A stretch of DNA of 64,000 nucleotides from Streptomyces umbrinus (GTDB lineage Bacteria > Actinomycetota > Actinomycetes > Streptomycetales > Streptomycetaceae): NCBI RefSeq assembly GCF_030817415.1, contig NZ_JAUSZI010000002.1, forward strand, positions 3,286,001-3,350,000, written 5' to 3'. Below, one piece after another: positions 16,388 through 32,756 of this stretch. Position numbers and translations under genes: made by a program. How positions within the stretch are numbered: the stretch's first letter is position 1; each line of letters opens with the position of its first letter. The notes beneath the pieces are model-generated. The model searched no databases and had not been told where the DNA came from. It was given only the letters and a program-made list of their open reading frames with translations.

Positions 16388-18181
16388 TCAGCTGTCGACC
16401 GTCTCGGGCACCGTCAGGCCGTCGTCCGTGGCCGCGAGGAACTGTGTGGCGGCGAGCTCGGCGTACAGCGGGTCGCCGGCCACGAGTTCGCGATGGGTGC
16501 CGACCGCCCGTACCTGCCCCGCGTCCATGACGACGATCCGGTCGGCCATGGTCACCGTGGACAGCCGGTGGGCGACGACCAGGACCGTGGTGGTGCGGGC
16601 GACATCGGCGACGGTGTCGCGCAGCGCCGCCTCGTTGACCGCGTCGAGCTGGCTGGTGGCCTCGTCGAGCAGCAGCAGCCGGGGCCGCCTGAGCAGGGCG
16701 CGGGCGATGGCCACGCGCTGGCGCTCACCGCCGGAGAGCTTGGTGCCGCGGTGGCCGACGAGGGTGTCGAGCCCCTTCGGCAGCCGGTCGACGAGGGAGT
16801 CGAGGCGGGTGGTCTTCAGCGCGCGGAGCACCTCGCCGTCGTCGGCGTCGGGATTGCCGAGCAGGAGGTTGTCGCGGAGGCTGCCGGAGAGGACGGGCGC
16901 GTCCTGCTCCACATAGCCGATGGCGGACCGGAGCGCGGAGACCTCCCAGTCGGTGAGGTCGCGGCCGTCCAGCGCGATGGTCCCCTGCTCCGGGTCGTAG
17001 AACCGCTCGATGAGCGAGAACACCGTGGTCTTCCCGGCGCCGGACGGTCCGACGAAGGCGGTCATGCCGCGCGGCGGGACGGCGAAGGTCACGCCGTGGT
17101 GCACGTACGGCAGGTCGTCGTCGTAGCGGAAGCGGACGTCCTCGAAGGCGATCGAGGCGGGTTCGGCGCCGGGCCGGGGCAGCGGCGAGGGCTCGGCGGC
17201 CGGTTCGGCGGGCAGCAGCCTGGCCTCCTCGATCCGGGCCAGGGCGGCCGAGCCGGTCTGGTACTGGGCGACGGCTCCGACGACCTGCTGGATCGGCGCC
17301 ATCAAGTAGAAGACGTACAGCAGGAACGCGACGAGGGTGCCGATGTCGATGGCTCCGGTCGCGACCCGTGCGCCGCCCACGGCGAGGACGGTGATGAAGG
17401 CGACCTGCATCGAGAGGCCGGCCGTGTTCCCCGCCAGCGCCGACCACTTGGCGGCGCGTACGCTCTGGCGCCACGACTCCTCGGCCGCCGCGTGCACGGC
17501 CCGCTCCTCGCGGTGCTCGGCGCCGGACGCCTTGATGGTCCTGAGCGCGCCGAGGGTCCGCTCCAGCGAGGCACCCATCGCTCCGACGGCGTCCTGCGCG
17601 CGCTTGCTGGCGCGGTTGATCCGCGGCACGATCACGCCGATCACCGTGCCCGCGGCCAGGACCACGCCCAGGGTGACGCCCGTCAGCACCGGGTCGACGA
17701 ACCCCATCATCGCGAGCGTGGCCACCAGGGTGAGCCCGCCCGTGCCGAGTCCGACCAGCGAGTCGGTGGTGACCTCCCTGAGCAGTGTGGTGTCCGAGGT
17801 GATCCGGGCCATCAGATCGCCGGGCTCGCTGCGGTCGACGGCGGATATGCGCAGCCGCAGCAGATGCGACACCAGGCCCCGCCGCGCGCCGAGCACGACG
17901 GACTCGGCGGTGTACCGCAGCACGTACCCGCCCAGCGCCCCGATCGCGGCGTTGGCGACCACCAGCGCCGACATGGCCAGCAGCGCGCCGGTGATCGCCC
18001 GGTCGTGCCCCAGGTCGTCGATGAGCGTTCGGGCGACCAGCGGCAGCGCGAGCCCGGCGGCGCCGGTCAGCAGCGACAGCACGGCCCCGAGCAGCAGCGT
18101 CCAGCGGTACGGGCGGACGTACCCGAGCAGGAGCCGCCACGGCGGCGTGGACGGTGCTTCGGACGGGTCGGGCTGTGACAC
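16388..18181 (-). CDS. ABC transporter, fused permease and ATPase (exporter half-transporter)
   Basis: 597-residue type IV exporter protein. The membrane domain (about 15-310) has six predicted helices, starting [16 protein letters not shown]. The nucleotide-binding domain has Walker [10 protein letters not shown], signature LSGGERQR and Walker [13 protein letters not shown]. It probably works as a homodimer that extrudes lipids or small hydrophobic compounds. The start is a GTG at 18181 with GGGGGAG just upstream; the longer frame adds residues without membrane character. It is transcribed divergently from a TetR regulator gene (178-bp gap), which is its likely repressor. Confidence 0.9.
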
Positions 18182-18359: not shown

Positions 18360-19010
18360 ATGACCGCTGCCCCCGAACAACCGGCGTGGCGCCGGCGTGC
18401 CGTCGAGCGATCCACCCGGGCCGCGAAGCTGCGCGCGGAGGAACGCGTACAGAGGTTTCTGGACTCGGCCTACGAGCTCATCGCCGAGAAGGGCACGACG
18501 GACTTCACCGTCCAGGAGGTCGTCAACCGCTCGAAGCAGTCGCTGCGCAGCTTCTACCAGTACTTCGACGGGAAGCACGAGCTGCTGCTCGCCCTGTTCG
18601 AGGACACGCTCGCCAAGTCGGCGAACGAGATCAGGGAAGCGGCCGCGTCGAAGAGTGATCCGCTCCGGGCGCTCCGCCTGGCCGTGGAGATGCTCCACGA
18701 TCGGGCTCGGCCGGGCCCCGACGTACCGCGGCAGCTGTTCGGCGGCTTCGCCCTGCAACTGCTGGTGAAGCACCCCTCGCAGGTGGCGGCCGCCCACCGG
18801 CCGCTGCTCACGGTGTTCGCGGAGCTCATCGAGCGGGCCGCCGACGCGGGCGCCATCGCGGCCGGGCGGCCCCGCCGCCAGGCCGCGCTCGTCCTGCAGA
18901 CCGTCATGTTCGCCGTCCAGGCCCATGGTTCGGCCGCCGACGGTCACGCCGAGCCGGTCAGCTCGGAGGAGGTCTGGCGGTTCTGCCTGGGGGGCATCTC
19001 CGGCACGTAG
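18360..19010 (+). CDS. TetR family transcriptional regulator
   Basis: 216 residues. The N-terminal helix-turn-helix (about 28-80) contains [24 protein letters not shown] and [16 protein letters not shown], the classic TetR pattern, followed by a ligand-binding helical domain. It is divergent from the exporter gene and converges on the P450/Baeyer-Villiger cassette. It could control either; divergence favours the exporter. TetR regulators with this wording occur beside catabolic P450 and monooxygenase genes, but the effector cannot be read from the sequence. Confidence 0.9.
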
Positions 19011-19119: not shown

Positions 19120-20748
19120 TCAATTCTCCGAAGGCCCGCGGGCCGACAGGCGAAGGATGCTTCCCTCGCCGTTTGCCGAGAGGAGGAGTGTGCCGTCCGG
19201 GGCCACTGCGAGGCCCGCGAACGAGTGCGGAGAGCCGGGCATGCCCGCGGTGAACAGGGTGGGTTCGGTGCGGGTGATGCCCGGGGGCAGGCCGACCGCG
19301 AGGTCCTCGGCGTCGATCCGGGTCTCCCCCGTCGTGAGGGACAACGCCCGCAGACACCGGTGCTCGACGTCCACCATGAACAGTTCGTCCCCGCGGACGG
19401 CCAGCCCCTGCGGCGCGCCGAGGCCCTCCGCGACGGCCACCGCCTCCCCGTCGTCGATCCGTAGCACGGCCCCGAGTTCGTCGTCGCTGACGTAGCAGTG
19501 CCCCTCGGCGTCGAAGGCGACATCGACAGGGTGCCGAAGCCCTTCCGCGAGGACGGTGACGGTGTCCGTCCCGTCGATCCGCCCGTCGATCCGTACGACG
19601 CGGCCGGCGCCCGACTCGGCCACGACGAGGGCTCCGTCGGGCGAGCGCTCGATCCCGGTGGGCTCGTTCAGCCCTTGCACCCGTACCCGCGTGGTCCTGC
19701 GGACGGGATCGTACGTACGGACGTCGCCGTACTCGGAGGCGAAGTGGAGAAGTCCGTCGTCCGCGGTGATGCCGTGGACGAAGGGCTGCAGTTCGTGGGT
19801 GATCACGCCGCTGGAGTCGTGCTCCCCGGAGTCGCCGGGGCTCGCCAGGCGGTAGTGGTCCGCCGCGTAGACCGTGCCGCCGACGTCGACGGTCACCCCG
19901 AAGGGGCCGCTGAGTCCTCGGGGAACGATCTCCCAGGTGCGGCCGTCCTCGCGCATCTCGGTGACCCCGCCGCTGCCGAAGCTGGAGACGAACATGCGGT
20001 TCTCCGCGTCGAAGGCCGCGTTGTCCAGCCCGAGGACGCCGCTCACGACCACCGACCGCGCCCCGGTGGCGAGATCGATGCGCGTCACGATGCCGGCCGG
20101 GCCCCGCGACAGGACGACCAGGACGCCGCCCTTGTCGAACCGGACCGCGACCGGGTCGTCCACCTCCTCGGCGAACAGTTCGGGTGTGCCGCCGTCCGGC
20201 GGGATCCGCCAGACCTGGTTGCCGATCATGTGCGGGTAGTACAGACAGCCGTCCGGGCCGAGCTGCATCGCGTTGCCGAGGGCCAGCCCGTCGGTCAGCA
20301 CCACCGGGTCGCCGCCGTCCGGGAACAGCTCCAGCAGGCGGCCGTTCATCTTCATCTCGTTGACGAAGAGCCGGTCTCCGACACAGGTGATGCCGTTGGG
20401 CACCTGCACCTGGTCGGAGACGAGGCTGTACGCGCCATGGGGGCTGCGCCGCCAGACCCGCCCCGGTGTCAGGTCGGCGATGTACATGGAACCGTCCGCC
20501 CCGAAGGCGAGGTCGTCGGGCGCCTGCACCGGACCGTCCAGCGGCACCACCACGTCGACGTCCCCCGTGGCCGTGTCGACGGCGCTGATCTGCCCGGCGA
20601 GGAACTGTGCCACGTACAGCCGCCCGTCGGGTCCGAAGGTGACGCCGTTCGAACCCCACAGGCGGTTCGGGGGGTTGAGTCTCCTCAGGTCCCAACGGCC
20701 GCTCGTGGAAGGCGTGTTGCCGGTGACGTCGAATCGGTTGGGCCGCAT
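19120..20748 (-). CDS. SMP-30/NHL-type beta-propeller protein, candidate lactone hydrolase
   Basis: 542 residues, about twice the length of ordinary SMP-30/gluconolactonases. I count about twelve repeats of the form x-P-x-G/D-hydrophobic-x-F-x-x-D/G-G-x-hydrophobic-Y/F-V (for example NGVTFGPDGRLYVAQF, DDLAFGADGSMYIADL, VDVAFDAEGHCYVSDD), enough for two six-bladed propellers. Candidate metal ligands of the SMP-30 type are the Asn in VPNGIT and the Asp in LGLDNAAFD. There is no signal peptide, so it is cytosolic. It is the last gene of the P450/Baeyer-Villiger cassette, 84 bp after the monooxygenase, where a lactonase would be useful. That role is inferred. Confidence 0.7.
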   Translation of the reverse strand: MRPNRFDVTGNTPSTSGRWDLRRLNPPNRLWGSNGVTFGPDGRLYVAQFLAGQISAVDTATGDVDVVVPLDGPVQAPDDLAFGADGSMYIADLTPGRVWRRSPHGAYSLVSDQVQVPNGITCVGDRLFVNEMKMNGRLLELFPDGGDPVVLTDGLALGNAMQLGPDGCLYYPHMIGNQVWRIPPDGGTPELFAEEVDDPVAVRFDKGGVLVVLSRGPAGIVTRIDLATGARSVVVSGVLGLDNAAFDAENRMFVSSFGSGGVTEMREDGRTWEIVPRGLSGPFGVTVDVGGTVYAADHYRLASPGDSGEHDSSGVITHELQPFVHGITADDGLLHFASEYGDVRTYDPVRRTTRVRVQGLNEPTGIERSPDGALVVAESGAGRVVRIDGRIDGTDTVTVLAEGLRHPVDVAFDAEGHCYVSDDELGAVLRIDDGEAVAVAEGLGAPQGLAVRGDELFMVDVEHRCLRALSLTTGETRIDAEDLAVGLPPGITRTEPTLFTAGMPGSPHSFAGLAVAPDGTLLLSANGEGSILRLSARGPSEN

Positions 20749-20832
20749 CGTCGTTCCCCGTCCCTGGGTTCGGTGATGGTCACTCGTACGGTCGGGGCGC
20801 CCACACCCCCGTGGTCGGGCGCCCCGGGCGGA

Positions 20833-22662
20833 TCACTCGACGATGACGTCGTTCATGCCGCCGTCCGCCCGCCAGCGCCTGAGCAGTCCGTGGAACGCGA
20901 CGGGGCCGTCGCCGTACGACTCGCTGCGCTTTCGGGGCCTGCCCTCGTTGTTGTAGTAGCCGGGGGTGCACTCGGCCTGGAACTTGTAGAGGTCCGCGGC
21001 CTTCTGACGGATCGTCGCGACCCAGGCGTCCTGGGCCTCGGGGGACGGCTCCACGTACCGGGCCCGGCGCTCTCGTGCCTCGGCGACCACTTCGGCGACG
21101 TGGCCGGCCTGTTCGTCGAGGATGTGGACGTAGTTCACGGCGCTGGCGTTCTGCAGCGGGCCTAGCTGGAAGAGGTTCGGGAAGCCGTGGCTGTAGAAGC
21201 CGTGGAGCGTCTTCGGCCCGCCCTGCATCCAGGCCCCGGGCAGCGTGGCGCCCTCCCTTCCGTGCACGGGGAGCCGGCCGGACAGGATGCCCGAGACGCC
21301 CACCTCGAATCCGGTGGCGAAGATGACGCAGTCGACCTCGTACTCGGCCCCGCCGACCACGACGGCGTCCTCGGTGATGCGCTCGACGCCCCCGTGGTCG
21401 GCCGTGTCGACGAGCGTCACATTGGGCCGGTTGAACGTGTCCAGGTAGTGGTCGCTGAACGTGGGCCGCTTGCACATGTAGCGGTACCAGGGCTTGAGAG
21501 CCTCGGCCGTGGAGGGGTCCTCGACGACGGTGTGCACGCGGTCGCGGATCTCGTTCATCTTCTGGAAGTCGGCGAGTTCGTTCACACGGTCGCGTTCCTC
21601 GGGCAGGAGGTCCGCGTAGTTGTTGGTCGGGATCAAGTTCTGCAGCAGCCGGGCGCTGCTGGTCCAGCCGTCGTTCACCAGGTCCTCGTCCGCCTGGGTC
21701 CCGGTGACGGTCCTGAGGAAGTTGTCCCTGCGACGCCGCTGCCAGCCCGGTTCCAGCGACTCGGCCCACCCGGGGTCCGTGGGGCGCTGGCCGCGTACGT
21801 CGACCGAGGAGGGCGTGCGCTGGAACACGTACAGCCGCTCGGCGTCGCGGCCGAGGTGCGGCACGACCTGGATGGCGGTCGCTCCGGTGCCGATCACGGC
21901 CACGTGCTTGTCGGCGAGCCGGTCCAGGTTTCCGTTCGCGTCGCCCCCGGTGTACGCGTAGTCCCAGCGGCTGGTGTGGAAGGTGTGGCCCTTGAAGTTC
22001 TCGATGCCGGGGATGCCGGGGAGTTTCGCCTGGCTGAGCGTGCCGCTGGAGACCACCACATAGCGCGCCCGCATTCGGTCGCCGCGGTCGGTGGTGACGA
22101 TCCACTCCAAATCGGTGTCGTCCCACCGGAGTTCGGTGGCCCGGGTCCGGAAGCAGGCGTCCTCGTACAGGCCGAAGTGGCGCCCGATCGCCCGCGCGTG
22201 CTGCCGGATCTCCTCGCCGGGCGCGTACTTCCACTGAGGGACGTAGCCGATCTCTTCGAGGAGCGGCATGTAGACGTACGACTCGATGTCGCAGTGGATT
22301 CCCGGGTACCGGTTCCAGTACCAGGTCCCGCCGAAGTCCCCGGCCTGCTCGATGACCCGGATGCCCCGAACCCCCGCCTGCCGCAGACGCGCTCCCGCCA
22401 GCAGCCCGCCGAACCCGCCGCCTACGACGACCACTTCCACCCGGTCGGTCAGCGGCTCCCTGCTGAACTCCGGTTGCTCCACGTACGGATCGTCGGCGTA
22501 GTAGCCGAACTCACCGGCGGCGCGGTGGTATTGGGCGTTGCCGTCGGGGCGGATCCGCCGGTCGCGCTCGGCCCGGTAGCGCGCACGCAGGGCCTCCGGG
22601 TCGAACCCGAGTTGCTGAGGGTCGAAGTCGGGCGCGGCGGGCGGGGTGTGGGGGGTGGTCAT
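20833..22662 (-). CDS. flavin-dependent Baeyer-Villiger monooxygenase
   Basis: 609-residue type I Baeyer-Villiger monooxygenase, which uses NADPH, FAD and O2 to turn a ketone into an ester or lactone. It carries the FAD motif GGGFGG (81-86), the GTWYWNRYPG segment (112-121), the family fingerprint FKGHTFHTSRWD (223-234, pattern FxGxxxHxxxW), and the NADPH motif GTGATA (258-263). The N-terminal extension of about 70 residues is that of the longer cyclopentadecanone/steroid-type enzymes. It lies 45 bp after the dehydrogenase gene that would supply its ketone, in one orientation with the P450 system. Confidence 0.92.
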   Translation of the reverse strand: MTTPHTPPAAPDFDPQQLGFDPEALRARYRAERDRRIRPDGNAQYHRAAGEFGYYADDPYVEQPEFSREPLTDRVEVVVVGGGFGGLLAGARLRQAGVRGIRVIEQAGDFGGTWYWNRYPGIHCDIESYVYMPLLEEIGYVPQWKYAPGEEIRQHARAIGRHFGLYEDACFRTRATELRWDDTDLEWIVTTDRGDRMRARYVVVSSGTLSQAKLPGIPGIENFKGHTFHTSRWDYAYTGGDANGNLDRLADKHVAVIGTGATAIQVVPHLGRDAERLYVFQRTPSSVDVRGQRPTDPGWAESLEPGWQRRRRDNFLRTVTGTQADEDLVNDGWTSSARLLQNLIPTNNYADLLPEERDRVNELADFQKMNEIRDRVHTVVEDPSTAEALKPWYRYMCKRPTFSDHYLDTFNRPNVTLVDTADHGGVERITEDAVVVGGAEYEVDCVIFATGFEVGVSGILSGRLPVHGREGATLPGAWMQGGPKTLHGFYSHGFPNLFQLGPLQNASAVNYVHILDEQAGHVAEVVAEARERRARYVEPSPEAQDAWVATIRQKAADLYKFQAECTPGYYNNEGRPRKRSESYGDGPVAFHGLLRRWRADGGMNDVIVE

Positions 22663-22707
22663 GCGTGTCCCTTCTGTTGTGGAGGGGGTGCGGTCGTCGC
22701 CCGGTCG

Positions 22708-23550
22708 CTACCGCGGGCGGAAGTGGAGGCGGAGCCAGGCGGCCTGTCCGCCGTCGACGAGAAGGTCGGTCCCGGTGATGTACGACGATTCGGGGCCGGT
22801 CAGGAACGCCACGGCGTCGGCGATCTCCCCGGGCGTCCCGACGCGGCCCGATCCGCTCGCGTCCAGCATGTCCATCATGTGCGCCCCGGACGGCGACGCG
22901 GCCTCCGCCCGGGACATCGCGGTGGCGATGACGCCCGGGCTGACGCTGTTGACCCGGGCGCCCCGCAGGTTCCAGGCGAGCGCGGCGGCCTGCACCCGTA
23001 GGTGGTTGGCCCGCTTGGTCACGATGTACGCGGTCTGCGCGTCGTCGCCGATGGCGGTGACGACGTCGAGGCCGAGGAGGTCCTCGGTGGCGGCCGTCGC
23101 GAGGGCGGCCTCCTCCTCGCGGCTCAGGGACGCGACATGACCGGCCATGCTGGAGATCACCACGAGGGACGTACCGCGGGTGGCGACCGTCTCGAACGCG
23201 TCGATGACATGGGCGGTACCGAGCAGGTTGACGTCGATGATCGTCTTCGCCCGCCCGGTCGCGGGCGAGACTCCCGCGGTGTGCACGATCGCGGCAACCC
23301 GGCCCTCGGCGGCCGCCGCCTCCGCGAGCTTGTGCACCGCCCCGCGGTCGGACACGTCGGTCACCATGCCGCGCACCGCGTAGCCCTCGTCGGTGAGCGC
23401 GGTGACGGCCCGGTCGAGCCCCTGGCTCGACGCGTCGGCGAGGAGCACGTTCCGCCCGTTGCCCAGCCGGCGCGCGACCGCGACGCCCATCCCTCCCGCC
23501 CCCGTGACCACGACCACGTCACGACGCTCCTCGTTCGGACGGTCGACCAT
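22708..23550 (-). CDS. short-chain dehydrogenase/reductase
   Basis: 280-residue classical SDR. The nucleotide motif TGAGGMG is at 16-22, an NNAG-like HTAG at 90-93, the catalytic Ser in ISSMAG (about 133-134), and YxxxK at Tyr175-Lys179. The C-terminal SPGVIATAMS and ITGTDLLVDGG are typical. An insertion of about 25 residues (EEEAALATAATEDLLG) precedes the catalytic Tyr. The start is the ATG at 23550 with GGGAGG six bases upstream. Within the cassette it would oxidise the alcohol made by the P450 to the ketone used by the Baeyer-Villiger enzyme. Confidence 0.9.
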   Translation of the reverse strand: MVDRPNEERRDVVVVTGAGGMGVAVARRLGNGRNVLLADASSQGLDRAVTALTDEGYAVRGMVTDVSDRGAVHKLAEAAAAEGRVAAIVHTAGVSPATGRAKTIIDVNLLGTAHVIDAFETVATRGTSLVVISSMAGHVASLSREEEAALATAATEDLLGLDVVTAIGDDAQTAYIVTKRANHLRVQAAALAWNLRGARVNSVSPGVIATAMSRAEAASPSGAHMMDMLDASGSGRVGTPGEIADAVAFLTGPESSYITGTDLLVDGGQAAWLRLHFRPR

Positions 23551-23608
23551 GAACAACCTCCCTGATCGTTCGAACTACCTTTTACCGACGCCCGGTTGAG
23601 CGCGAGGG

Positions 23609-24829
23609 CTACAACACGCCAGTGGCCGGTACGGCGTCGTGCCACGTGGAGCGCACGGCGACGGCCTGCCGCCAGCCGCGGATCGCCTTCGGCGGCATAC
23701 CGACCGCGAGAACCCCGGTCAGGTGGTCGCCCCTGCGATAGGCGACCAGGAACCGGCGCTCGGCCAAGTCCCCCTCCACCACAGTGACTTCGTCGTGACC
23801 GCGCAGAAAGCCGAACGCCTGGACCTTCATGCCGTACTGGTCCGACCAGAAGTACGGCACGGGCGCGAACGGCTTGCGCGCCTGCGGGTGCAGGAGGTTC
23901 CGGGCGGCGGCCATGCCCTGTTCGGCGGCGTTCGTACGGTGCTCGATGCGCATCGACGCCCCGAACAGCGGGTTGTGCCAGCGGGCTACGTCACCGGCCG
24001 CGTACACGCCCCCGGTGGTCGGCCCAGGGGACTTCGTCGGCCCGGTGGCCTCCCGGACCGCCTCGCAGTACTCGTCGCAGACCAGGCCGTCGCCCACCGT
24101 GAGGCCGCTGTCCGCCAGCCACTCAGTGTTCGGAAGGGAGCCGACAGCCACCAACACCTCGTCGCCCACGACCAGTTCACCGTCGGCCAGCCGCACTCCG
24201 TCCTCGGTCACCTCGCGGACGGTGACCCCGGTGCGCAGGTCCACCCCGTGCTCCAGGTGCGCGGCCGACAGCACCCGCCCGACCTCGTCGCCGACGGCGT
24301 GGCCGAGCGGTACGGGCGCCGGTTCCAGAAGGGTGACCTCGGCGCCGAGACCCCGGGCCACGGCGGCGGCCTCGGCGCCCAGGAACCCGGCGCCGACGAC
24401 CACGAGCCGCCGCCCCTCCCCCAGCCGGTCCCGCAGCGCGAGTGCGTCGTCCAGGGTGCGAAGCACATGCGCGTGCCCGTCACCGGGCAGCCGCCGCGGG
24501 CGCACCCCGGTGGCCACGACCAGTCCGTCGTACGCGACCCGCGTCCCGTCCGAGAGCAGCACCTCACGCCCGTCGAGGTCGAGGCCCGTAGCCGCGCTTC
24601 CGAGTCTCAAGTCAAGCTTCAGGGCGTCGAGTTCGCCGGTCGAGCGCAGCGTCAGCCGGTCGTGCTCCCACTCGGACGCCAGGATCTGCTTGGACAACGG
24701 CGGCCGGTCGTACGGCGGGTGCGGCTCGTCACCGACCAGGGTGAGCGTGCCGTCGTACCCCTCCCGGCGCAGCGTCTCGGCGGCCGAGAGTCCGGCCGCC
24801 GAGGCACCCACGACGAGAATCCGCCTCAC
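23609..24829 (-). CDS. NAD(P)H-dependent ferredoxin reductase
   Basis: 406-residue FAD oxidoreductase of the putidaredoxin-reductase type. The N-terminal FAD motif GASAAGLSAAETLRREG, the TLVGDEPHPPYDRPPLSK segment and the second Rossmann motif VVVGAGFLGAEAAAVARGLG identify the family. The C-terminal domain includes WSDQYGMKVQAFG. It transfers electrons from NAD(P)H to the ferredoxin whose gene overlaps it by 4 bp (ATGA at 24826-24829), so both are made together for the P450 encoded upstream. Confidence 0.93.
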   Translation of the reverse strand: MRRILVVGASAAGLSAAETLRREGYDGTLTLVGDEPHPPYDRPPLSKQILASEWEHDRLTLRSTGELDALKLDLRLGSAATGLDLDGREVLLSDGTRVAYDGLVVATGVRPRRLPGDGHAHVLRTLDDALALRDRLGEGRRLVVVGAGFLGAEAAAVARGLGAEVTLLEPAPVPLGHAVGDEVGRVLSAAHLEHGVDLRTGVTVREVTEDGVRLADGELVVGDEVLVAVGSLPNTEWLADSGLTVGDGLVCDEYCEAVREATGPTKSPGPTTGGVYAAGDVARWHNPLFGASMRIEHRTNAAEQGMAAARNLLHPQARKPFAPVPYFWSDQYGMKVQAFGFLRGHDEVTVVEGDLAERRFLVAYRRGDHLTGVLAVGMPPKAIRGWRQAVAVRSTWHDAVPATGVL

Positions 24830-25023
24830 TGGTCGACCAGCCGGATCGCCGCCGCCGGGCAGATCGCCACGGCTTCGCGCACCCCGTCGAGGAGTTCGTC
24901 GGCGGGCTGCTCCTCCAGCAGGATCGCCACCCCGTCGTCGTCACGCTGGTCGAAGACCTCCGGGGAGGCCATCACACACTGACCCGCCGCCACACACTTC
25001 GGTTCGTCCAGTTCCACACGCAT
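24826..25023 (-). CDS. 3Fe-4S ferredoxin for the P450
   Basis: 65-residue ferredoxin with Cys10, Cys16 and Cys55-Pro (C-x5-C-x38-CP), the three-cysteine pattern of the small ferredoxins that serve Streptomyces CYP105-type P450s. Acidic residues dominate. I chose the ATG at 25023 (MRVELDEPKC), which gives the family length; the open frame runs 15 codons further upstream. It lies 58 bp after the P450 gene. Confidence 0.93.
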   Translation of the reverse strand: MRVELDEPKCVAAGQCVMASPEVFDQRDDDGVAILLEEQPADELLDGVREAVAICPAAAIRLVDQ

Positions 25024-25081
25024 GGTCTTCTTCCTTGCTCCTTCGGTACGTTCACCCACTGCGTTCATCGGTGCGGGCCGG

Positions 25082-26326
25082 TCACCAGGTGACGGGCAGG
25101 GAGGCGACGCCGTACGTGGTGCCGCTGTGGTCGAACTCGAGGTCCTCGACCTTGGCCGCCAGGCGCAGCGTGGGGACGCGCCGGTAGAGGGTGCCGTAGA
25201 CGACCTGGAGTTCCAGGCGGGCGAGGGACTGGCCCAGGCACTGGTGGGGGCCGTAGCCGAACGCGTTGTGCTGGCGCGCGGGGCGGGTGACGTCCACCTG
25301 GTCGGCGCCGGGGAAGGTCTCGGGGTCCCAGTTGGCGGCGTGCAGGTCCACGATCAGGCCGTCGCCCGCGCGGATGACCTGGCCGCCGATCTCGATGTCC
25401 TCGGTGGCGACGCGGCGCAGACCGACCTGGACGATGCTCAGGTAGCGCAGCAGTTCCTCCACCGCGCCGGCGACGATCTTGGGGTCCTCGGAGTCGCGCA
25501 CCAGGGCGAGTTGCTCCGGGTTCTCCAGCAGGACCAGCGTGCCGAGGCTGATCATCGTCGCGGTGGTCTCGTGGCCGGCGATGAGCATCGCCACGCCCAT
25601 GTGGACGGCCTCGCTCCGGCTCATCTCGCCGGCCTGGACGCGCCCCGCCATCTCGGACAGCACGTCGTCACCGGGGTCGGTGAGCTTCTTGCCGAGCAGG
25701 TCGTCGAGGTATGTGGAGAGCGCGGTGCTCGCCGCCCTGGAGTCCTCGGGTGCGGCGGCACGGTCGAGCGCGAGGCTGCTGTTCTCCTGGAAGAACTCGT
25801 GGTCCGCGTACGGCACTCCGAGCAGTTCGCTGATCACCAGCGAGGGCACGGGCAGCGCGAGCGCCGTCAGGAGGTCGGCAGGGTTCGGCCCGGCCAGCAT
25901 GTCGTCGATCAGACCGTCGACGATCTTCTGGATCGGGGCCCGCATGGCCTCGATCCGCTTGATGATGAACGGCCCGTTGACCATCCGGCGCAGCCGGGTG
26001 TGCTCGGGGGCGTCCGTGTTGACGATGAGCTCCGGGGTGTACTCGGCGATCTGCTGCCGGTACGCCGTCACGAACGGGAAGTTGCCGGGGCTCTTGTCGT
26101 TGGCGCTGACGCGGGGGTCGGTCAGCAGGGCCCGCTGCAGGGCGTGCCCGGTGACGATCCAGGGCGTGCTGCCGTCCCAGATCCGGACCTTGCTGATCGG
26201 GTTCTGCTCTCGCAGCTCCTCCACGGCCGGCGGCGGGGCGAACGGACAGCCGGCCGCCCTCGGCATCGGGAACTCGGGCATCGCCTCGGCTGCGTCGGAC
26301 GCGGCTCCGGCCAGTGTCTCGGCCAT
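25082..26326 (-). CDS. cytochrome P450 (CYP105-like)
   Basis: 414-residue soluble P450 with the I-helix AGHETT (250-255), ExxR (Glu291-Arg294), and heme-ligand loop FGYGPHQCLG (Cys363). The C-terminal wording (LARLELQVVYGTLYRRVPTLRLA) and the adjacent 3Fe-4S ferredoxin resemble the CYP105 family, known for hydroxylating diverse xenobiotics and terpenoid or macrolide substrates. The start is the ATG at 26326 with GAGGAG upstream; the longer frame is not P450-like. It is the first gene of the six-gene cassette and the probable entry point of the pathway. Confidence 0.93.
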   Translation of the reverse strand: MAETLAGAASDAAEAMPEFPMPRAAGCPFAPPPAVEELREQNPISKVRIWDGSTPWIVTGHALQRALLTDPRVSANDKSPGNFPFVTAYRQQIAEYTPELIVNTDAPEHTRLRRMVNGPFIIKRIEAMRAPIQKIVDGLIDDMLAGPNPADLLTALALPVPSLVISELLGVPYADHEFFQENSSLALDRAAAPEDSRAASTALSTYLDDLLGKKLTDPGDDVLSEMAGRVQAGEMSRSEAVHMGVAMLIAGHETTATMISLGTLVLLENPEQLALVRDSEDPKIVAGAVEELLRYLSIVQVGLRRVATEDIEIGGQVIRAGDGLIVDLHAANWDPETFPGADQVDVTRPARQHNAFGYGPHQCLGQSLARLELQVVYGTLYRRVPTLRLAAKVEDLEFDHSGTTYGVASLPVTW

Positions 26327-26753: not shown

Positions 26754-27534
26754 TCAGCGTCCGAGTCGGTAGCCGAAGCCCCGGCGCGTGTGGATCAGTG
26801 GCGGCTGCTCCTGGTCCACCTTGTGGCGGAGTCGGGAGACGAGTTTCTCGATCGCGTTGCCGGCCCGGGTCTCGCCCCAGACGTGCCGACAGATCTGTTC
26901 CTTCGACAGCACCCGCTCGGCGTTGACGAGCAGATGACGCAGCAGCCGGTACTCCGCCGGGGTGAGGTCGAGGGCCCGTCGGCCGCGCCGGGGCCTGACA
27001 GGTGGCGTCGTCGAGGACGAGGTCGCCGTAGCACGGCCCTTGGCGCACCGAACCGCGGCCGCGCAGTAACACGTGGGCCCTGGTGAGGACTTCGGAGATC
27101 CGGAACGGCACGGTGACGTAGTCCGATTCACCCAGGCCGAGTTCGGGGACGAGGAGCCCCAACTTCTCGTACTCGGCGAGGAAGAGCACCGGAGGCCGGT
27201 CGGCCGGGCGGAAGCGGCGCCCCTCCCCCAGCTCCTCGATGTCCGGGACCGACACATCCATGACCACGAGGTCGAAGCGGTGCTCGGCGAGCCGCGCCAT
27301 CCCCTGAGCGCCGGTGCGGGCGGCGGTCACCCGGTAGTCCGCCAACTCCAGTGTGGTGGTGAGCAGTTCGACGATCGCCGAGTCGTGGACGATGACCAGG
27401 ACACGCTGCCCGTTACCACGTGCGGGCGCGGACACCTCCGCGTCACTCCCGCGCACCCCGCCGACGCCGACGCCGACCATTCCGAGCACCCGGTCCACCC
27501 CGTCCGTCCCGTCCATCGCATGCACCTCGTTCAT
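26754..27534 (-). pseudogene. OmpR-family response regulator interrupted by a frameshift
   Basis: One frame (from about 27534) encodes a receiver domain with the phospho-acceptor in FDLVVMDVSVPD. Another frame encodes the DNA-binding winged helix (LDLTPAEYRLLRHLLVNAE, SKEQICRHVWGE, GFGYRLGR) and stops at 26754. They join smoothly (TCQA to RRGRRALDLT) if one base is removed from the G4 run at 26990-26993. The receiver is atypical: the conserved Lys before Pro-Phe is Val (VTVPF) and the N-terminal acidic pair is His-Asp, so it may not be phosphorylated normally. No histidine kinase gene is adjacent. The N-terminus is unusually long and the start uncertain. Confidence 0.8.
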
Positions 27535-27696
27535 GAGTAGGAGGCGGGCGGCGGCGACACCACCTCGTGCCGGACTCACACGTCGCGTACGAACGGCGGG
27601 CGCGCCGAACGACACCGAGAAAACCCTCGCACCCCGGGACTCCGGCGACGAGGGCGCGCGCCGACCGTGCCGTCGACCGGAGGCGGCCGGATCCGG

Positions 27697-28239
27697 TCAG
27701 GCCTGGCGCGGCGAGGAATCCTCGCCCTCCAGCGTGCCCTCGGTGTGCAGGAAGTCGTCGACCATCCGATGGAACAGCGTGGACAGTTGCCGCAGCTCCT
27801 CCGGCGACCAGTGGGAGAGCGCGAGTTCCATGCCCCGGCAACTCGCCATGCGGATACGGTCGATCGCCTCCTGGCCGACGGGGGTGAGCTGGATGCGCTG
27901 GGCGCGGCGGTCGTCCGGATCCGGCACCCGGGTCACGTAACCGCCCTTCTCCAGCTGCTGCACCTGCCGGGTGACGTGCGACGCCTCCACGGCCAACCGT
28001 GCCGCCAGCTCGCCGGGGCGCAGGGGCTCCGAGTCGGCGATCTGCCGCAGCAGCGCCACCGCGGCCCGGTCCAGCGACACCCCGGCCAGGGCCATGAGGC
28101 GGTCGTGCTGCCTGACCCGACCGGTCAGATAGACGATGCGGTTGAGGGCTCGCTCGATCTCGATCACCTCGCTGGAGACGGGGGCGGCTCCGGCTCCGGA
28201 GAGAGGGTCAGGGGTGCGCGCGGGCGACGATGTGGACAT
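27697..28239 (-). CDS. MarR family transcriptional regulator
   Basis: 180-residue winged-helix repressor. The DNA-binding core (about 60-120) includes LRPGELAARLAVEASHVTRQVQQLEKGGYVTRVPDPDDRRAQRIQLT, with the MarR wing signature DxRRxxxxLT. The ATG at 28239 has AAGGTGG five bases upstream. The inverted repeat at 28259-28275 lies immediately before the gene and probably mediates autoregulation. The target may be itself plus a transporter elsewhere; the MMPL exporter 1 kb away has its own linked MarR gene. Confidence 0.9.
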   Translation of the reverse strand: MSTSSPARTPDPLSGAGAAPVSSEVIEIERALNRIVYLTGRVRQHDRLMALAGVSLDRAAVALLRQIADSEPLRPGELAARLAVEASHVTRQVQQLEKGGYVTRVPDPDDRRAQRIQLTPVGQEAIDRIRMASCRGMELALSHWSPEELRQLSTLFHRMVDDFLHTEGTLEGEDSSPRQA

Positions 28240-28530: not shown

Positions 28531-28983
28531 ATGGACAAGCCCACGCACTTGATCGAGTTCGAGGCGATGCTGCTCGGGCGGCACCTCTACCTCAACTCGC
28601 CCCGGGCCCGGACCGGCGGCCGCCTTGAGCGCAGCGCGTACATCCTGCTGAGCCGCATCCGTATGGAGGGCCCGATGTCCATCGGGCAGCTCAGCGACGC
28701 CTTCGGTCTTGACGCCTCCACGCTCAACCGACAGACCGCCGCGATGCTGCGCGGCGGTCTCGTCGAGCGCATTCCGGACCCCGACGGGGGCATGGCCCGC
28801 AAGTTCCGCATCACCGACGAGGGCGAGCACCGCCTCGACACACATCGCGCGGAGGCCATCCAGGGACTGGAGAAGGTGATGGCCGACTGGGGCCCCGAGG
28901 AGGTCGCCACCTTCGCCGGGTACCTCAAGCGGTTCAACACGGACATCGAGAACCTCGACGAGCGGCCCTGGCCCCGCCCCTGA
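28531..28983 (+). CDS. MarR family transcriptional regulator
   Basis: 150 residues with a winged helix (about 45-110): GPMSIGQLSDAFGLDASTLNRQTAAMLRGGLVERIPDPDG, then the shortened wing MARKFRITDEGEHRL. It lies directly upstream of, and in the same orientation as, the MMPL transporter gene (210-bp gap with a perfect inverted repeat), so it probably represses that transporter. The ATG at 28531 has GGAAGGA about ten bases upstream. Confidence 0.9.
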   Translation: MDKPTHLIEFEAMLLGRHLYLNSPRARTGGRLERSAYILLSRIRMEGPMSIGQLSDAFGLDASTLNRQTAAMLRGGLVERIPDPDGGMARKFRITDEGEHRLDTHRAEAIQGLEKVMADWGPEEVATFAGYLKRFNTDIENLDERPWPRP

Positions 28984-29084
28984 GCACGGGAACCTCTGAG
29001 ACCGCGAGGCCCCTCTCCCCGTACGCCTCGATGCTGACCGCGGCGTGCCCCGTAGTGCCCTCGGAGGACGTCCCGGGCACCGGC

Positions 29085-29102
29085 GTACTGCGCTCTCAGT
29101 AC
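29085..29102. promoter_or_regulatory. perfect inverted repeat upstream of the MMPL transporter
   Basis: GTACTG, six bases, CAGTAC. This is a perfect 18-bp dyad in the gap between the MarR and MMPL genes, placed to act as an operator for the transporter. Confidence 0.6.
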
Positions 29103-29193
29103 GGGAGAGTGTCGGCAGGCGCACGACGACGTGGCGGCCGCTGCCCGGGAGTCTTGGGAGGTACCCGAGACCAGATGTGGAGACCTCCGTTCC

Positions 29194-31404
29194 GTGGCTA
29201 CTTTTCTCTATCGACTGGGCCGTCTGACCTTCCGACGGCGTTGGCTCGTGACGTTCCTGTGGGTGGCGGTGCTGGCCGCGGTCGGCTTCGCCGCCGTCAA
29301 GGCGCCCGAGGCACCCGACACGGGGTTGTCCATGCCCGGTATCGAGTCCCAGAAGGCGTTCGACCTGATGGACCAGCGCTTCCCCGGGGCCACGGCCGAC
29401 GGGGCGAACGCGCGGGTCGTCTTCATCGCGGACGGCGGGCAGAAGATCACGGCCGCCGACAACCGGAAGACCATCGACGCGTTCGTCGAGCGGGCCGGCG
29501 ACGGTTCGCAGGTCGCCAGTGCCGTGAACCCCTTCCAGGCCGAGGCGGTCAGCAAGGACGCGACGACCGCGTACGCCACCGTCACCTACAAGGTGAAGGC
29601 CGAGGACCTCACCGACGCCGGCAAGAACCACCTCGAGAAAGCCGTCGAACAGGCCCGTGACGCGGGGCTGACCGTCGAGGTGGGCGGCACCGCGCTGGCC
29701 ACCCAGCCGTCGGCAGGCGCTACGGCGGAGATCATCGGCGTCTCGATCGCGGCCGTCGTGCTGATGATGACCTTCGGATCGCTGGCTGCCGCCGGTCTTC
29801 CGCTGCTCATCGCCGTCCTCGGCGTCGGCGTCAGCATGGCGTCGATCATGGCGCTGTCCGACGCGTTCGGACTGTCCTCGTCGACCGGGACGCTGGCCAC
29901 GATGCTCGGCCTCGCGGTGGGCATCGACTACGCGATGTTCGTCGTCTCCCGCTACCGCGAGGAGCGGGCCAACGGACACCACCCCCAGGAGGCGGCGGGC
30001 CTGGCCGCCGGCACTGCCGGATCCGCCGTCGTCTTCGCCGGGCTCACCGTCGTCATCGCGCTGGCCGGGCTCTCGGTGGTCGGTGTCCCGATGCTGACCA
30101 AGATGGGTCTTGCCGCCGCGGGCGCGGTCGTCGTCGGTGTGCTGATCGCGCTGACACTCGTCCCGGCCGTGCTCGGTTTCTGGCCCAACGCCGTTCTCTC
30201 GCGCAGGGCCCGCAGGAGCGGACGTGTCAAGGAGGGCGGCGAGAACAACGGCGGCAGCCGCTGGGCCCGCTTCGTCCTGCGCCGCCCCGTGCCCGTCCTG
30301 CTGGCCTCCGTCGCCGGACTCGGCGCACTCGCGATACCCGTGATGGACCTGCAGCTGGGCATGCCCGGGGACGAGGCCAAACCGACCTCCACCACCGAAC
30401 GCCGTGCCTACGACGACCTCGCCGACGGATTCGGCCCCGGCTTCAACGGGCCGCTGACCATCGTCGTGGACGCCAAGGGCGCCCGGGACGCGAAGACCGC
30501 CGTGGCCAAGATCTCCAAGGAGATCGGCGCCACGGAGGGAGTCGTGTCCGTCTCGCCGGCCCGGTTCAACCCGGCCGGGGACACCGCGGTCTTCTCCGCG
30601 GTCCCGGCCGACTCGCCCACCAGCGAGCGTACGAAGGGCCTCGTCCACACCATCCGTGACGAGCGGCCCGCGACCGAGGCCTCGACCGGCGCGGAGTTCG
30701 AGGTCACCGGCACCACCGCACTGAACATCGATGTCGCCCAGAAGATGCAGGACGCGCTGATCCCGTACCTGATCGTCGTGGTGGGTCTGGCGATCCTGCT
30801 CCTGCTGCTCGTGTTCCGGTCCGTCCTGGTGCCGATCAAGGCGGCGCTCGGGTTCCTGCTGTCGGTGCTCGCGGCCCTGGGTACCGTCGTCGCCGTCTTC
30901 CAGTGGGGCTGGGGTGCGGACCTGCTCGGCCTGGAGACGACCGGCCCGATCATGAGCATGACGCCGATCTTCCTGATCGGTATCGTCTTCGGGCTCGCCA
31001 TGGACTACCAGGTCTTCCTCGTGACCCGTATGCGGGAGGCGTACGTGCACGGCGACCGGCCCGGCCAGGCCGTGGTCACCGGCTTCCGGTACAGCGCCCG
31101 GGTCGTGGTCGCCGCCGCACTGATCATGATGGCGGTGTTCTCCGGATTCATCGGGGCCGGTGAATCCATGATCAAGATGATCGGCTTCGGGCTGGCCGTG
31201 GCCGTACTGTTCGACGCGTTCGTCGTCCGTATGGCGTTCGTTCCGGCGGTCCTCGCCCTGCTGGGCAAGGCTGCCTGGTGGATGCCCCGTTGGCTGGACC
31301 GGCTGCTGCCCGACATCGACGTGGAGGGCGCGGCCCTCCACCGGAAGCCCGCCGTGCCCCTCACCGTGGCCGGCACGCACGACCGGGAGTCGGCTCACGT
31401 CTGA
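29194..31404 (+). CDS. MMPL/RND family membrane transporter
   Basis: 736-residue transporter with two homologous halves. Each half has one N-terminal helix, a large external domain, and five clustered helices (about 175-345 and 525-700). Signature stretches are LGLAVGIDYAMFVVSRYREE in the first half and IVFGLAMDYQVFLVTRMRE in the second, the proton-relay GxxxDY motifs of MMPL proteins. Such transporters export lipids, antibiotics or detergents. The GTG at 29194 is preceded by GGAG. A terminator hairpin follows at 31424. Control by the linked MarR regulator is likely. Confidence 0.93.
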   Translation: MATFLYRLGRLTFRRRWLVTFLWVAVLAAVGFAAVKAPEAPDTGLSMPGIESQKAFDLMDQRFPGATADGANARVVFIADGGQKITAADNRKTIDAFVERAGDGSQVASAVNPFQAEAVSKDATTAYATVTYKVKAEDLTDAGKNHLEKAVEQARDAGLTVEVGGTALATQPSAGATAEIIGVSIAAVVLMMTFGSLAAAGLPLLIAVLGVGVSMASIMALSDAFGLSSSTGTLATMLGLAVGIDYAMFVVSRYREERANGHHPQEAAGLAAGTAGSAVVFAGLTVVIALAGLSVVGVPMLTKMGLAAAGAVVVGVLIALTLVPAVLGFWPNAVLSRRARRSGRVKEGGENNGGSRWARFVLRRPVPVLLASVAGLGALAIPVMDLQLGMPGDEAKPTSTTERRAYDDLADGFGPGFNGPLTIVVDAKGARDAKTAVAKISKEIGATEGVVSVSPARFNPAGDTAVFSAVPADSPTSERTKGLVHTIRDERPATEASTGAEFEVTGTTALNIDVAQKMQDALIPYLIVVVGLAILLLLLVFRSVLVPIKAALGFLLSVLAALGTVVAVFQWGWGADLLGLETTGPIMSMTPIFLIGIVFGLAMDYQVFLVTRMREAYVHGDRPGQAVVTGFRYSARVVVAAALIMMAVFSGFIGAGESMIKMIGFGLAVAVLFDAFVVRMAFVPAVLALLGKAAWWMPRWLDRLLPDIDVEGAALHRKPAVPLTVAGTHDRESAHV

Positions 31405-31423
31405 CCCGCATCCCGTACGCGCC

Positions 31424-31458
31424 CGAGGGCCGCCCGTGCTCGTCACGGACGGCCCTCG
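31424..31458 (+). terminator. terminator of the MMPL gene
   Basis: Two 15-base arms (31424-31438 and 31444-31458) with a single mismatch and a five-base loop, starting 19 bases after the MMPL stop codon. Confidence 0.7.
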
Positions 31459-31521
31459 TCGGCCGGTACGCACGGGCCGTCACCCACCATGGCCCCAGCT
31501 CACTTCCCACCGGAGAGTCCG

Positions 31522-32703
31522 ATGATCACCAGCTGGCAGCGGTACGCCAAGGACCATCCCCGCGTCGTCGACGTGGTGGTGATCGTGCAGCTCCACGCCG
31601 CCGTCGTCCTGGGAAGCGCGTTCACCACGGCAGCAGACTCCCGGACGAAGGGATCGCTCGGTCTCGGCGTGCTGCTGGGCGGCATCGCCTGCGTCGCCCT
31701 GCTGTGGCACCGGAGCCACCCCCGTACCGTCGTCGCGGTGACCGCGATCTGCGGCAACACCGCCGGGGCGGTCGGCTATCTGCTCACCCCGCTGCTGCTG
31801 GCACCGGTCATGGCCGCGCTGTACTGGCTGGCCGTCCACACCGACCGCAGGACCGCACGCGTCCACTGCCTCGCCGTCACCGCCCTGCTGGTGGCCACGG
31901 CGATGCTCTTCGACCAGTACGGCCATCCGCTGGCCCTCAAGACGATCGGCCCCGCCGCCTGGGTGGTGCTGCCGATCGCCTGGGGTACGGCTTCCCGGCT
32001 GCGGAGCGCCTATCTGGAGGCCGTGCAGGCCCGCGCCGAACACGCGGAGCGCACCCGTGAGGAGGAGGCGCGCCACCGGGTCGCCGAGGAGCGCATGCGC
32101 ATCGCCCGCGAACTGCACGACGTGGTCGCCCACCACATGGCGCTGGCCAACGCACTGGCCGGCACCGCCGCACACCTCGCGGCCAGCCGCCCCGAGCAGA
32201 CGGAGCGGATCCTCGCCGACCTGGTCGGCACCACCTCCACCGCGCTGCGCGAACTGAAGGCCACCGTCGGCCTGTTGCGCCGGCCCGACGACTCGGAGGC
32301 ACCCCTGGAACCCGCCCCCGGACTCGGGCGGCTGACCGAGCTGGCCACCGCGTTCGCCTCCGCCGGGCTGACGGTCGACATAGTCACCGAGGGCGACTGG
32401 CGGCCGCTCTCACCGGGCGTGGATCTGACAGCGTTCCGGATCGTGCAGGAAGCACTCACCAACGTCACCAAGCACGCGTCCGCGCGGGCCGCGCAGGTGA
32501 CACTGGCGTACACGCACGACCGGCTGACCGTCACGGTCACCGACGACGGATCCGGGGACACTCCCGTGGCACCCTCCCCGAGCGGCGGCTTCGGCCTCAT
32601 CGGCATGCGAGAACGTGCCCACTCCGTCGGCGGCCGCGTCCGGACGGGACCCCGCCCCGAGGGCGGCTTCAGCGTCACCGGCGAACTGCCGATCCATCTC
32701 TGA
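31522..32703 (+). CDS. sensor histidine kinase, NarL-partner (HisKA_3) type
   Basis: 393 residues. Four to five N-terminal membrane helices (to about 160) act as the sensor. A short coiled coil (RAEHAERTREEEARHRVAEE) follows, then the dimerisation/phosphoacceptor motif ARELHDVVAHHM with His199, and an HATPase domain with the N-box ALTNVTKHA and G-box GFGLIGMRERA. GGAG sits six bases before the ATG at 31522. It is encoded 53 bp upstream of its response regulator. The signal is unknown. Confidence 0.92.
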   Translation: MITSWQRYAKDHPRVVDVVVIVQLHAAVVLGSAFTTAADSRTKGSLGLGVLLGGIACVALLWHRSHPRTVVAVTAICGNTAGAVGYLLTPLLLAPVMAALYWLAVHTDRRTARVHCLAVTALLVATAMLFDQYGHPLALKTIGPAAWVVLPIAWGTASRLRSAYLEAVQARAEHAERTREEEARHRVAEERMRIARELHDVVAHHMALANALAGTAAHLAASRPEQTERILADLVGTTSTALRELKATVGLLRRPDDSEAPLEPAPGLGRLTELATAFASAGLTVDIVTEGDWRPLSPGVDLTAFRIVQEALTNVTKHASARAAQVTLAYTHDRLTVTVTDDGSGDTPVAPSPSGGFGLIGMRERAHSVGGRVRTGPRPEGGFSVTGELPIHL

Positions 32704-32756
32704 CCCCGACCCCGACCCCCGGCCGCAACTACGACCCCGGAAGCGAACCGAATCAG

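What the first reader, a model, noticed from the sequence alone, without database searches (positions are those of the whole stretch)
19120..26326. Six-gene cassette with the parts of a complete C-H to hydroxy-acid degradation route
One strand carries, with gaps of 45-84 bp or overlaps, a P450, its 3Fe-4S ferredoxin, a ferredoxin reductase, an SDR, a Baeyer-Villiger monooxygenase and a double SMP-30-type propeller. Seen directly: order, spacing, intact catalytic motifs. Family knowledge: P450 gives an alcohol, SDR a ketone, Baeyer-Villiger enzyme a lactone or ester, SMP-30 relatives hydrolyse lactones. Inference: the cassette opens an alicyclic, terpenoid or macrocyclic ring; the long N-terminus of the monooxygenase fits larger ketones. 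It could equally tailor an antibiotic, though no biosynthetic core gene is nearby.
Basis: partly seen in the sequence, partly recalled or inferred. Interest (0 to 1): 0.75.

Follow-up and report, generated by a model that had tools for sequence, protein, structure and literature searches.

The report
Ring-opening operon with paired propeller lactonase
This Streptomyces operon joins two separately inherited gene modules, one that probably turns a C-H bond into a ketone and one that probably opens the resulting ring or chain through a lactone or ester, and the second module, a Baeyer-Villiger enzyme with a two-domain propeller protein, is a conserved pair whose substrate is still unknown.

Summary
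The six genes are real, on the minus strand, in the stated order, with the expected motifs. The string is longer: a MarR gene and an orphan OmpR-type regulator (frameshifted here) precede the P450. Comparison splits it into two modules. Module 1, P450-ferredoxin-reductase-SDR (C-H to ketone), also lies at a separate locus in 8 of 246 Streptomyces genomes. Module 2, Baeyer-Villiger monooxygenase (BVMO) plus double propeller, is the conserved core: the propeller abuts 29 of 30 close BVMO copies in those genomes (48 of 58 close rows in a second set) and 0 of 42 distant copies. Propeller homologues (36-39%) lie within 5 kb of BVMO homologues (46-52%) on one Rhodococcus and two Sphingobium plasmids; the two annotated ones also carry Rieske oxygenase, ThDP-enzyme and ligase genes, which favours catabolism. 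The propeller folds confidently as two six-bladed propellers; most deep conservation, including polar residues at blade starts, is in the first, as expected of a metal-dependent lactonase. Activity, metal and substrate are unshown. P450-SDR-BVMO-lactonase is a well-supported hypothesis, but the full gene set occurs in only 7 of 94 BVMO rows. A new variant of a known kind; the BVMO-propeller pair is the new part.

The parts
27697..28167 (-). MarR-family regulator, first gene of the string
   Evidence: Pfam MarR 54.3 bits; homologue heads the same string in L038, L039, L040, L043, L053
26760..27576 (-). Orphan OmpR-type response regulator with degenerate receiver; reading frame shifts between receiver and winged helix near 26.99 kb
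   Evidence: tblastn of the S. phaeochromogenes homologue L038: 90% over the N-terminal part, 100% over 77 residues of the C-terminal part in another frame; receiver domain Pfam 44.5 bits
25082..26326 (-). CYP105-like P450, 414 aa
   Evidence: Closest solved structures 5y1i (481 bits) and CYP105Q4 8swl (471 bits, residues 1-414); motifs
24826..25068 (-). Three-cysteine, single-cluster (3Fe-4S type) ferredoxin
   Evidence: Fer4_13 44.1 bits; CVAAGQC...CP; weak PDB matches to a ferredoxin-like part of a CYP51 chain and to a ferredoxin joined to CYP143
23609..24829 (-). NAD(P)H ferredoxin reductase
   Evidence: Pyr_redox_2 196 bits, Reductase_C 51.8 bits
22708..23556 (-). Short-chain dehydrogenase (PRK06940 subfamily), TTG start as called
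   Evidence: NCBIfam 299.5 bits over cut-off 280; TGAGGMG and YIVTK
20833..22662 (-). Type I Baeyer-Villiger monooxygenase with extended N-terminus, 609 aa
   Evidence: Best PDB match 5mq6, 446 bits over residues 24-582; NCBIfam PtlE/PenE model 738.6 bits, below its cut-off of 1100; both BVMO fingerprints
19120..20748 (-). Double six-bladed propeller, 542 aa; probable lactonase/esterase; most deep conservation in the first propeller (about residues 28-277)
   Evidence: AlphaFold2 mean pLDDT 91.4, pTM 0.91; SGL 58.1 and Vgb_lyase 61.7 bits, both above cut-off; 57 of 66 deeply invariant residues at or before residue 305
16388..18082 (-). ABC exporter (membrane domain plus ATPase), same strand downstream beyond a TetR gene on the other strand; possible accessory of the nearest clade
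   Evidence: Pfam ABC_membrane 139 bits, TetR at 18360-19010; cluster 11 follows BVMO/propeller in L038, L039, L041, L080 and also occurs in L058, and in L127

Best explanation
A modular oxidative ring- (or chain-) opening operon. The P450, fed by its own ferredoxin and reductase, hydroxylates a C-H bond; the SDR oxidises the alcohol to a ketone; the BVMO, of the long type that takes bulky or polycyclic ketones, inserts oxygen to give a lactone or ester; the first propeller of the two-propeller protein, using a metal held by polar residues at the blade starts, opens that lactone/ester to a hydroxy acid; the second propeller is structural or shapes the substrate site. MarR and an atypical orphan response regulator control it. 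BVMO+propeller is the old core and P450-Fd-FdR-SDR is a separate module that extends it upstream. Its use is most likely catabolism or detoxification of an alicyclic/terpenoid-type compound. Shown here: gene content, families, module structure, predicted fold, conservation. Inferred: every reaction, the metal, the substrate, the direction of use.
For: (1) The propeller abuts 29 of 30 BVMO copies of 68% identity or more in 246 Streptomyces genomes and 0 of 42 copies of 50-64%; 28 of 31 genomes with the propeller have it beside a BVMO (coordinates matched by hand). (2) The pair extends to Nonomuraea, Actinoalloteichus, Crossiella, Actinokineospora, Catenuloplanes and Marinitenerispora and, with propellers at 36-39% and BVMOs at 46-52% identity, to one Rhodococcus and two Sphingobium plasmids. 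(3) In a sister BVMO clade a different, single-domain propeller lies beside the BVMO in 6 of 6 loci, and another in Rhodococcus yunnanensis (SGL family confirmed for the two proteins scanned): repeated pairing of BVMO with propeller. (4) P450-Fd-FdR-SDR lies at a separate locus in 8 of the 246 genomes; all 8 hold a BVMO relative somewhere in the genome, against 68 of 246 in general (hypergeometric 2.5e-5; kinship and genome size not controlled). (5) Another SDR subfamily lies on the same strand within 3 genes of BVMO in 15 of 43 BVMO+propeller loci, against 1 of 394 genes further away. (6) The annotated Rhodococcus USK13 and Sphingobium RAC03 loci carry Rieske-type oxygenase, SDRs, ThDP enzyme and ligase genes. 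(7) First-propeller conservation and predicted fold.
Against: No enzyme activity or substrate is known. In the second set of loci 10 of 58 BVMO rows at 67% identity or more lack the propeller (L039, L044, L051, L058, L072, L073, L077, L081, L085, L133; L073 and L133 are the same sequence), and the 33 other distant rows there have none (36 rows, 3 with it). The window's string and the flanks scanned hold no CoA ligase or beta-oxidation gene, unlike the plasmids. The best NCBIfam models for BVMO and P450 are pentalenolactone biosynthetic enzymes, though far below cut-off. In the fold comparison the proven-type lactonases XC5397 and RPA3624 align over a range (12-538) that points to the second propeller, not the conserved first; only the putative lactonase 2p4o lies on 28-268. 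Metal-site geometry was not measured (no coordinates available). The sister-clade propeller looks by eye like a lipoprotein, so would act outside the cell. Double propellers at 39% (Mycobacterium branderi) and about 31% lie in stretches without a BVMO. One propeller copy has an internal stop (G136).
Confidence: 0.6

Rival explanations
1. Tailoring or stand-alone biosynthesis of a lactone-type metabolite (pentalenolactone-like logic): the BVMO makes a lactone that is kept, the propeller is a processing enzyme, and a terpene synthase or other core gene lies elsewhere in the genome.
For: BVMO's and P450's best NCBIfam models are PtlE/PenE and pentalenolactone synthase; the closest P450 structures include antibiotic-tailoring enzymes; the atypical response regulator resembles those of antibiotic clusters (recalled; one search gave listings only); an ABC exporter lies downstream in the nearest clade.
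Against: No biosynthetic core in the ten flanking ORFs scanned; scores far below equivalog cut-offs (738.6 of 1100; 275.4 of 700); the pair lies in many different genomic surroundings; the catabolic plasmid relatives.
Confidence: 0.22
2. Defence: oxidative and lactone-opening inactivation of a foreign antibiotic or signal (a virginiamycin B lyase-like or macrolide/butyrolactone-opening role), induced through MarR and the orphan regulator.
For: Propeller passes the Vgb_lyase Pfam cut-off (61.7 over 50) and matches Vgb structures weakly; MarR and degenerate-receiver regulators are typical of small-molecule sensing (recalled).
Against: Several enzymes ahead of the propeller are more than an inactivation needs; Vgb sequence matches in the PDB cover residues 20-190 only; the Rhodococcus/Sphingobium surroundings look like growth substrates.
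Confidence: 0.12
3. The propeller is not an enzyme but a binding or scaffold protein for the BVMO or its product.
For: NHL/Pizza-type propellers dominate the fold matches and most such proteins bind rather than catalyse (recalled); the lactonase matches of that call fall largely on the less conserved second propeller.
Against: Deep conservation of polar residues at the blade starts of the first propeller; other SGL-family propellers take a neighbouring place in related loci.
Confidence: 0.15

Closest known systems
PtlE/PenE/PntE (neopentalenolactone/pentalenolactone D synthases) and Sle_62070 of S. leeuwenhoekii
   Same: Long type I BVMO for bulky ketones; best NCBIfam model. PMC6058054 (passages read) reports that Sle_62070, 50% identical to PntE and 39% to PockeMO, turns cyclic ketones into lactones.
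   Different: Scores 738.6 against a cut-off of 1100, so not an equivalog; no terpene-synthase gene in the flanks scanned; partnered by a double propeller. Identity to Sle_62070 itself was not measured.
PockeMO (5mq6; name from PMC6058054 and recalled) and the CPDMO group
   Same: Best solved relative, 446 bits, alignment starts in the N-terminal extension at residue 24. CPDMO-group BVMOs are about 600 aa (PMC4052671, passages read).
   Different: PMC4052671 reports a CPDMO-group relative that does not act on cyclopentadecanone, so group membership does not fix the substrate; CPDMO itself was not aligned here.
Alicyclic/terpenoid P450-plus-BVMO catabolism (camphor; cineole recalled)
   Same: Same chemical logic: P450 hydroxylation, dehydrogenase, Baeyer-Villiger step (recalled).
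   Different: Camphor's diketocamphane monooxygenases are flavin-dependent two-component enzymes (title and abstract start of PMC6352141 in listing), not this FAD-type BVMO; a propeller hydrolase partner is not part of that scheme as I recall it.
Beta-propeller lactonases (XC5397 3dr2, RPA3624 8djf/7ris, SMP-30) and virginiamycin B lyase
   Different: Two fused propellers, 542 aa; the ligand set was not matched position by position, and the structural alignments to 3dr2 and 8djf fall on the second propeller's range.

Membership tests
Type I Baeyer-Villiger monooxygenase | Fingerprints [A/G]GxWxxxx[F/Y]P[G/M]xxxD and FxGxxxHxxxW[P/D] (as quoted in PMC6058054) with two Rossmann motifs | tested here: met
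   GGTWYWNRYPGIHCD at 111, FKGHTFHTSRWD at 223, GGGFGG at 81, GTGATA at 258
PtlE/PenE pentalenolactone D synthase (NF045818) | Score above curated cut-off of 1100 bits | tested here: not met
   738.6 bits
Pentalenolactone synthase P450 (NF045816) | Score above curated cut-off of 700 bits | tested here: not met
   275.4 bits
CYP105 family | At least about 40% identity to named CYP105 members (rule recalled) | tested here: inconclusive
   End-to-end 471-bit match to CYP105Q4; percent identity not computed
SMP-30/gluconolactonase/LRE-like (PF08450) | Score above gathering cut-off 26.3 | tested here: met
   58.1 bits for the protein; best stretch only 30-123. In the six-frame search the same family scored 23.9 bits here, under the cut-off
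SMP-30/PON-type lactonase | Metal ligands from several blades around the channel | tested here: inconclusive
   N34, D78, D79, N118, N159, D242, N243 invariant in 44 of 44 aligned propellers (seven cluster members and L136 left out); geometry and equivalence to known ligands not measured
Virginiamycin B lyase (PF24684) | Score above cut-off 50 | tested here: met
   61.7 bits
Virginiamycin B lyase (PF24684) | Catalytic residues of Vgb | not tested
   PDB sequence matches to Vgb cover residues 20-190; no residue-level alignment was obtained
Classical SDR (PRK06940 subfamily) | Cofactor motif TGxxxGxG-like, YxxxK, score over cut-off | tested here: met
   TGAGGMG, YIVTK (by eye); 299.5 over 280
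3Fe-4S P450 ferredoxin | Three-cysteine CxxAxxC...CP motif (recalled) | tested here: met
   CVAAGQC and CP in the translation (by eye); cluster type itself not measured

The most novel reading that the evidence does not exclude
BVMO plus a two-propeller hydrolase is a previously unrecognised, ancient ring-opening unit spanning Actinomycetota and Alphaproteobacteria, in which the first propeller is a metal-dependent lactonase dedicated to the BVMO product and different oxygenases (P450 module or Rieske enzyme) plus SDRs are plugged in upstream to choose the substrate.
Probability: 0.48. Interest if true: 0.65.

Novelty: new variant of a known kind. Interest (0 to 1): 0.5.

Why it matters
Physiological substrates of BVMOs are widely unknown (stated in PMC4498894, abstract passage seen). 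A fixed genomic partner gives a direct handle: the propeller should act on whatever the BVMO makes, so its substrate reports the BVMO's, and the upstream module reports the C-H bond attacked. It would also add two-domain propellers to the enzymes that finish Baeyer-Villiger pathways, and give biocatalysis a four-step C-H to hydroxy-acid set with its native redox partners.

Tried and rejected
Searches for print: (BVMO with SMP-30 or gluconolactonase and related terms) found 0 papers; the listed parts (20 of 29 papers; 3 of 3; 15 of 39; 12 of 27) show, in titles and abstract starts, no paper on a BVMO-propeller pair. These cover only the open-licence PMC library. Searches gave listings only.

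Rejected: 'one fixed six-gene cassette', because modules separate. Rejected: equivalence to PtlE or pentalenolactone synthase. Not decided: identity of metal ligands; the SGL alignment A2 shows an E/ND/NG/D(G or N) pattern only partly in register with N34/DD79/NG118/N159/DN243. The BVMO tree is a quick tree without the mixture model and warns of long branches; propeller presence needs 11 changes (shuffled mean 31.2, 0 of 500 as low), reductase presence 8; it cannot tell gain from loss. Foldseek's full-length ranking is filled by long multi-propeller proteins with TMq about 0.3-0.5 and says little. The gene calls come from my own simple caller and may have wrong starts or strands. One search kept the best 80 of 117 relatives, so the named set is cut at its distant end. 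score only the best 5 to 10 first-look candidates per genome and use strict E-value limits, so weaker relatives are not counted. Odds of the novel case were lowered from 0.50 to 0.48 on recheck, because the solved lactonases align over the second propeller's range.
Full report
OBSERVATION. The window lies in a 12.4-Mb genome; the nearest named match at this locus is Streptomyces phaeochromogenes (BVMO 97% identical). The six genes are as described: propeller 19120-20748, BVMO 20833-22662, SDR 22708-23556, ferredoxin reductase 23609-24829, ferredoxin 24826-25068, P450 25082-26326, all on the minus strand, gaps 84, 45, 52, -4 and 13 bp. Catalytic motifs are intact. Upstream on the same strand are an OmpR-type response regulator (about 26760-27576) and a MarR gene (27697-28167), which keep the same order in L038, L039, L040, L043 and L053. 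In the window the regulator's frame shifts between receiver and winged helix near 26.99 kb; an intact relative exists in L038. Whether that is biological or a sequencing error cannot be told here.

CONSERVATION. A scan of one-genome-per-species contigs found 117 BVMO relatives and kept the best 80, 79 distinct named loci. Mapping the six proteins on them and clustering neighbours showed that the most frequent neighbour is the propeller (43 of the 79 loci, besides the window). With loci fetched later, 94 BVMO rows were scored: 51 have a propeller within 8 kb, 12 have the reductase within 2.5 kb on the same strand, and 7 (window included) have propeller, reductase, P450 and this SDR together. 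Of the 58 rows at 67% identity or more, 48 have the propeller and 10 do not; of the 36 more distant rows, 3 do, all on plasmids that were found through the propeller.

In 246 Streptomyces genomes (own included) the propeller is found in 31 (E <= 1e-60) and BVMO relatives in 68 (E <= 1e-150). I matched coordinates of the two calls by hand: of 30 BVMO copies at 68% identity or more, 29 abut the propeller (the exception is G029); of 42 copies at 50-64%, none does. Of the 31 genomes with the propeller, 28 have the BVMO beside it; the others are G188 (BVMO remnant), G191 and G009 (propeller fragment). One copy, in G136, has an internal stop.

MODULES. The SDR has 10 copies at 65% identity or more in the 246 genomes; 2 are in BVMO loci (own, G266) and 8 lie elsewhere, each beside a reductase relative. 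The stretches around those 8 show P450-ferredoxin-reductase-SDR in every one; 6 of 8 also have the response regulator and 5 of 8 the MarR gene. Three of the 8 genomes (G147, G161, G258) hold a BVMO-propeller pair at another locus and the other five a more distant BVMO, so all 8 have some BVMO relative, against 68 of 246 in general (hypergeometric 2.5e-5; kinship and genome size not controlled). One kind of genomic site occurs in three states: module alone (L118), module+BVMO (L081), module+BVMO+propeller (L125; L126 lacks the SDR). Conversely BVMO+propeller occurs without P450: regulator-BVMO-propeller (L045-L048, L056, L059), TetR-BVMO-propeller-SDR (L052, L054, L069), SDR-BVMO-propeller (L050, L061, L067, L076, L079). 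That other SDR subfamily lies within 3 genes on the same strand in 15 of 43 loci, against 1 of 394 genes further off (a pattern test of mine that misses some SDRs, including the window's own kind). The window's kind of SDR adds 6 more of the 43. So C-H-to-ketone and ketone-to-acid halves combine and separate, as the proposed chemistry predicts.

BEYOND ACTINOMYCETE CHROMOSOMES. tblastn of the propeller against plasmid records found 14 records, 10 with at least 80% of the protein. I opened eight. In Rhodococcus sp. USK13 and Sphingobium spp. RAC03 and V4 a BVMO homologue (46-52%) lies within 5 kb of the propeller (36-39%; the RAC03 copy matches in two overlapping pieces and is not annotated); in the Nonomuraea gerenzanensis record, a chromosome-sized record, it abuts (70%/55%); in Mycobacterium branderi, Pseudonocardia, Rhodococcus DK17 and Rhizobium no BVMO match is in the stretch. 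USK13 and RAC03 are annotated with a ring-hydroxylating oxygenase (Rieske confirmed by Pfam for USK13), SDRs, a ThDP enzyme resembling acetolactate synthases below their cut-offs and an adenylate-forming or AMP-binding ligase; USK13 also acyl-CoA dehydrogenases, CoA transferase and transporters, RAC03 a MaoC-type gene. V4 has no annotation and I did not annotate it. This is a degradation context, with a ring-hydroxylating oxygenase where the window has a P450.

In the sister BVMO clade (L092, L095, L096, L098, L100, L105) a different, single-domain propeller lies divergently just upstream in 6 of 6, and in Rhodococcus yunnanensis L089 another lies just downstream on the other strand; one of the six (L105) and the L089 protein were scanned and both pass the SGL cut-off. 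The own genome has only seven SGL matches in all, so repeated adjacency is unlikely to be chance.

MECHANISM. Best reading: P450 -> SDR -> BVMO -> propeller hydrolysis. Shown: families, order, modularity, predicted fold. From family knowledge: reaction types; Sle_62070, a long BVMO that PMC6058054 places with PntE and PockeMO, makes lactones from cyclic ketones (passages). Inferred: substrate class, lactone versus ester, hydroxy acid, metal, catabolic use. The ABC exporter downstream in the nearest clade and the absence of CoA-activation genes in the window's string and scanned flanks leave room for detoxification or tailoring.

VERDICT. The new and testable part is the BVMO-double propeller pair.

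Noticed in passing
window 26760-27576 (-): The orphan OmpR-type regulator has a degenerate receiver (the conserved lysine position reads V in the window, V/L/M in its nearest relatives, K in several others) and is frameshifted here; it may bind a ligand instead of being phosphorylated.
   Followed up: partly
L090 and L099: Alphaproteobacterial MAGs with five and three tandem BVMO genes of this type on one contig.
   Followed up: no
L137, L138, L139: Double propellers at about 31% identity in other catabolic-looking loci (LLM or F420-type oxidoreductases, acyl-CoA dehydrogenases, amidohydrolases, alpha/beta hydrolase) without a BVMO match, so the double-propeller family is wider than BVMO pathways.
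   Followed up: partly
L092, L095, L096, L098, L100, L105: Single-domain propeller with a lipoprotein-like N-terminus (by eye in L100 and L105) divergent from a 60-63% identical BVMO; a possible extracellular lactonase partner.
   Followed up: partly
window 28531-33437 (+): MarR gene, MMPL transporter, histidine kinase and LuxR-type response regulator just upstream of the operon.
   Followed up: no
L040, L043, L074, L075, L089: An alpha/beta-hydrolase-like gene (cluster 27) lies on these loci; a second candidate for the ester-cleaving step (family judged by eye).
   Followed up: no
L091: A record titled as a Klebsiella pneumoniae MAG carries a 56% identical BVMO; probably a binning or naming error.
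   Followed up: no
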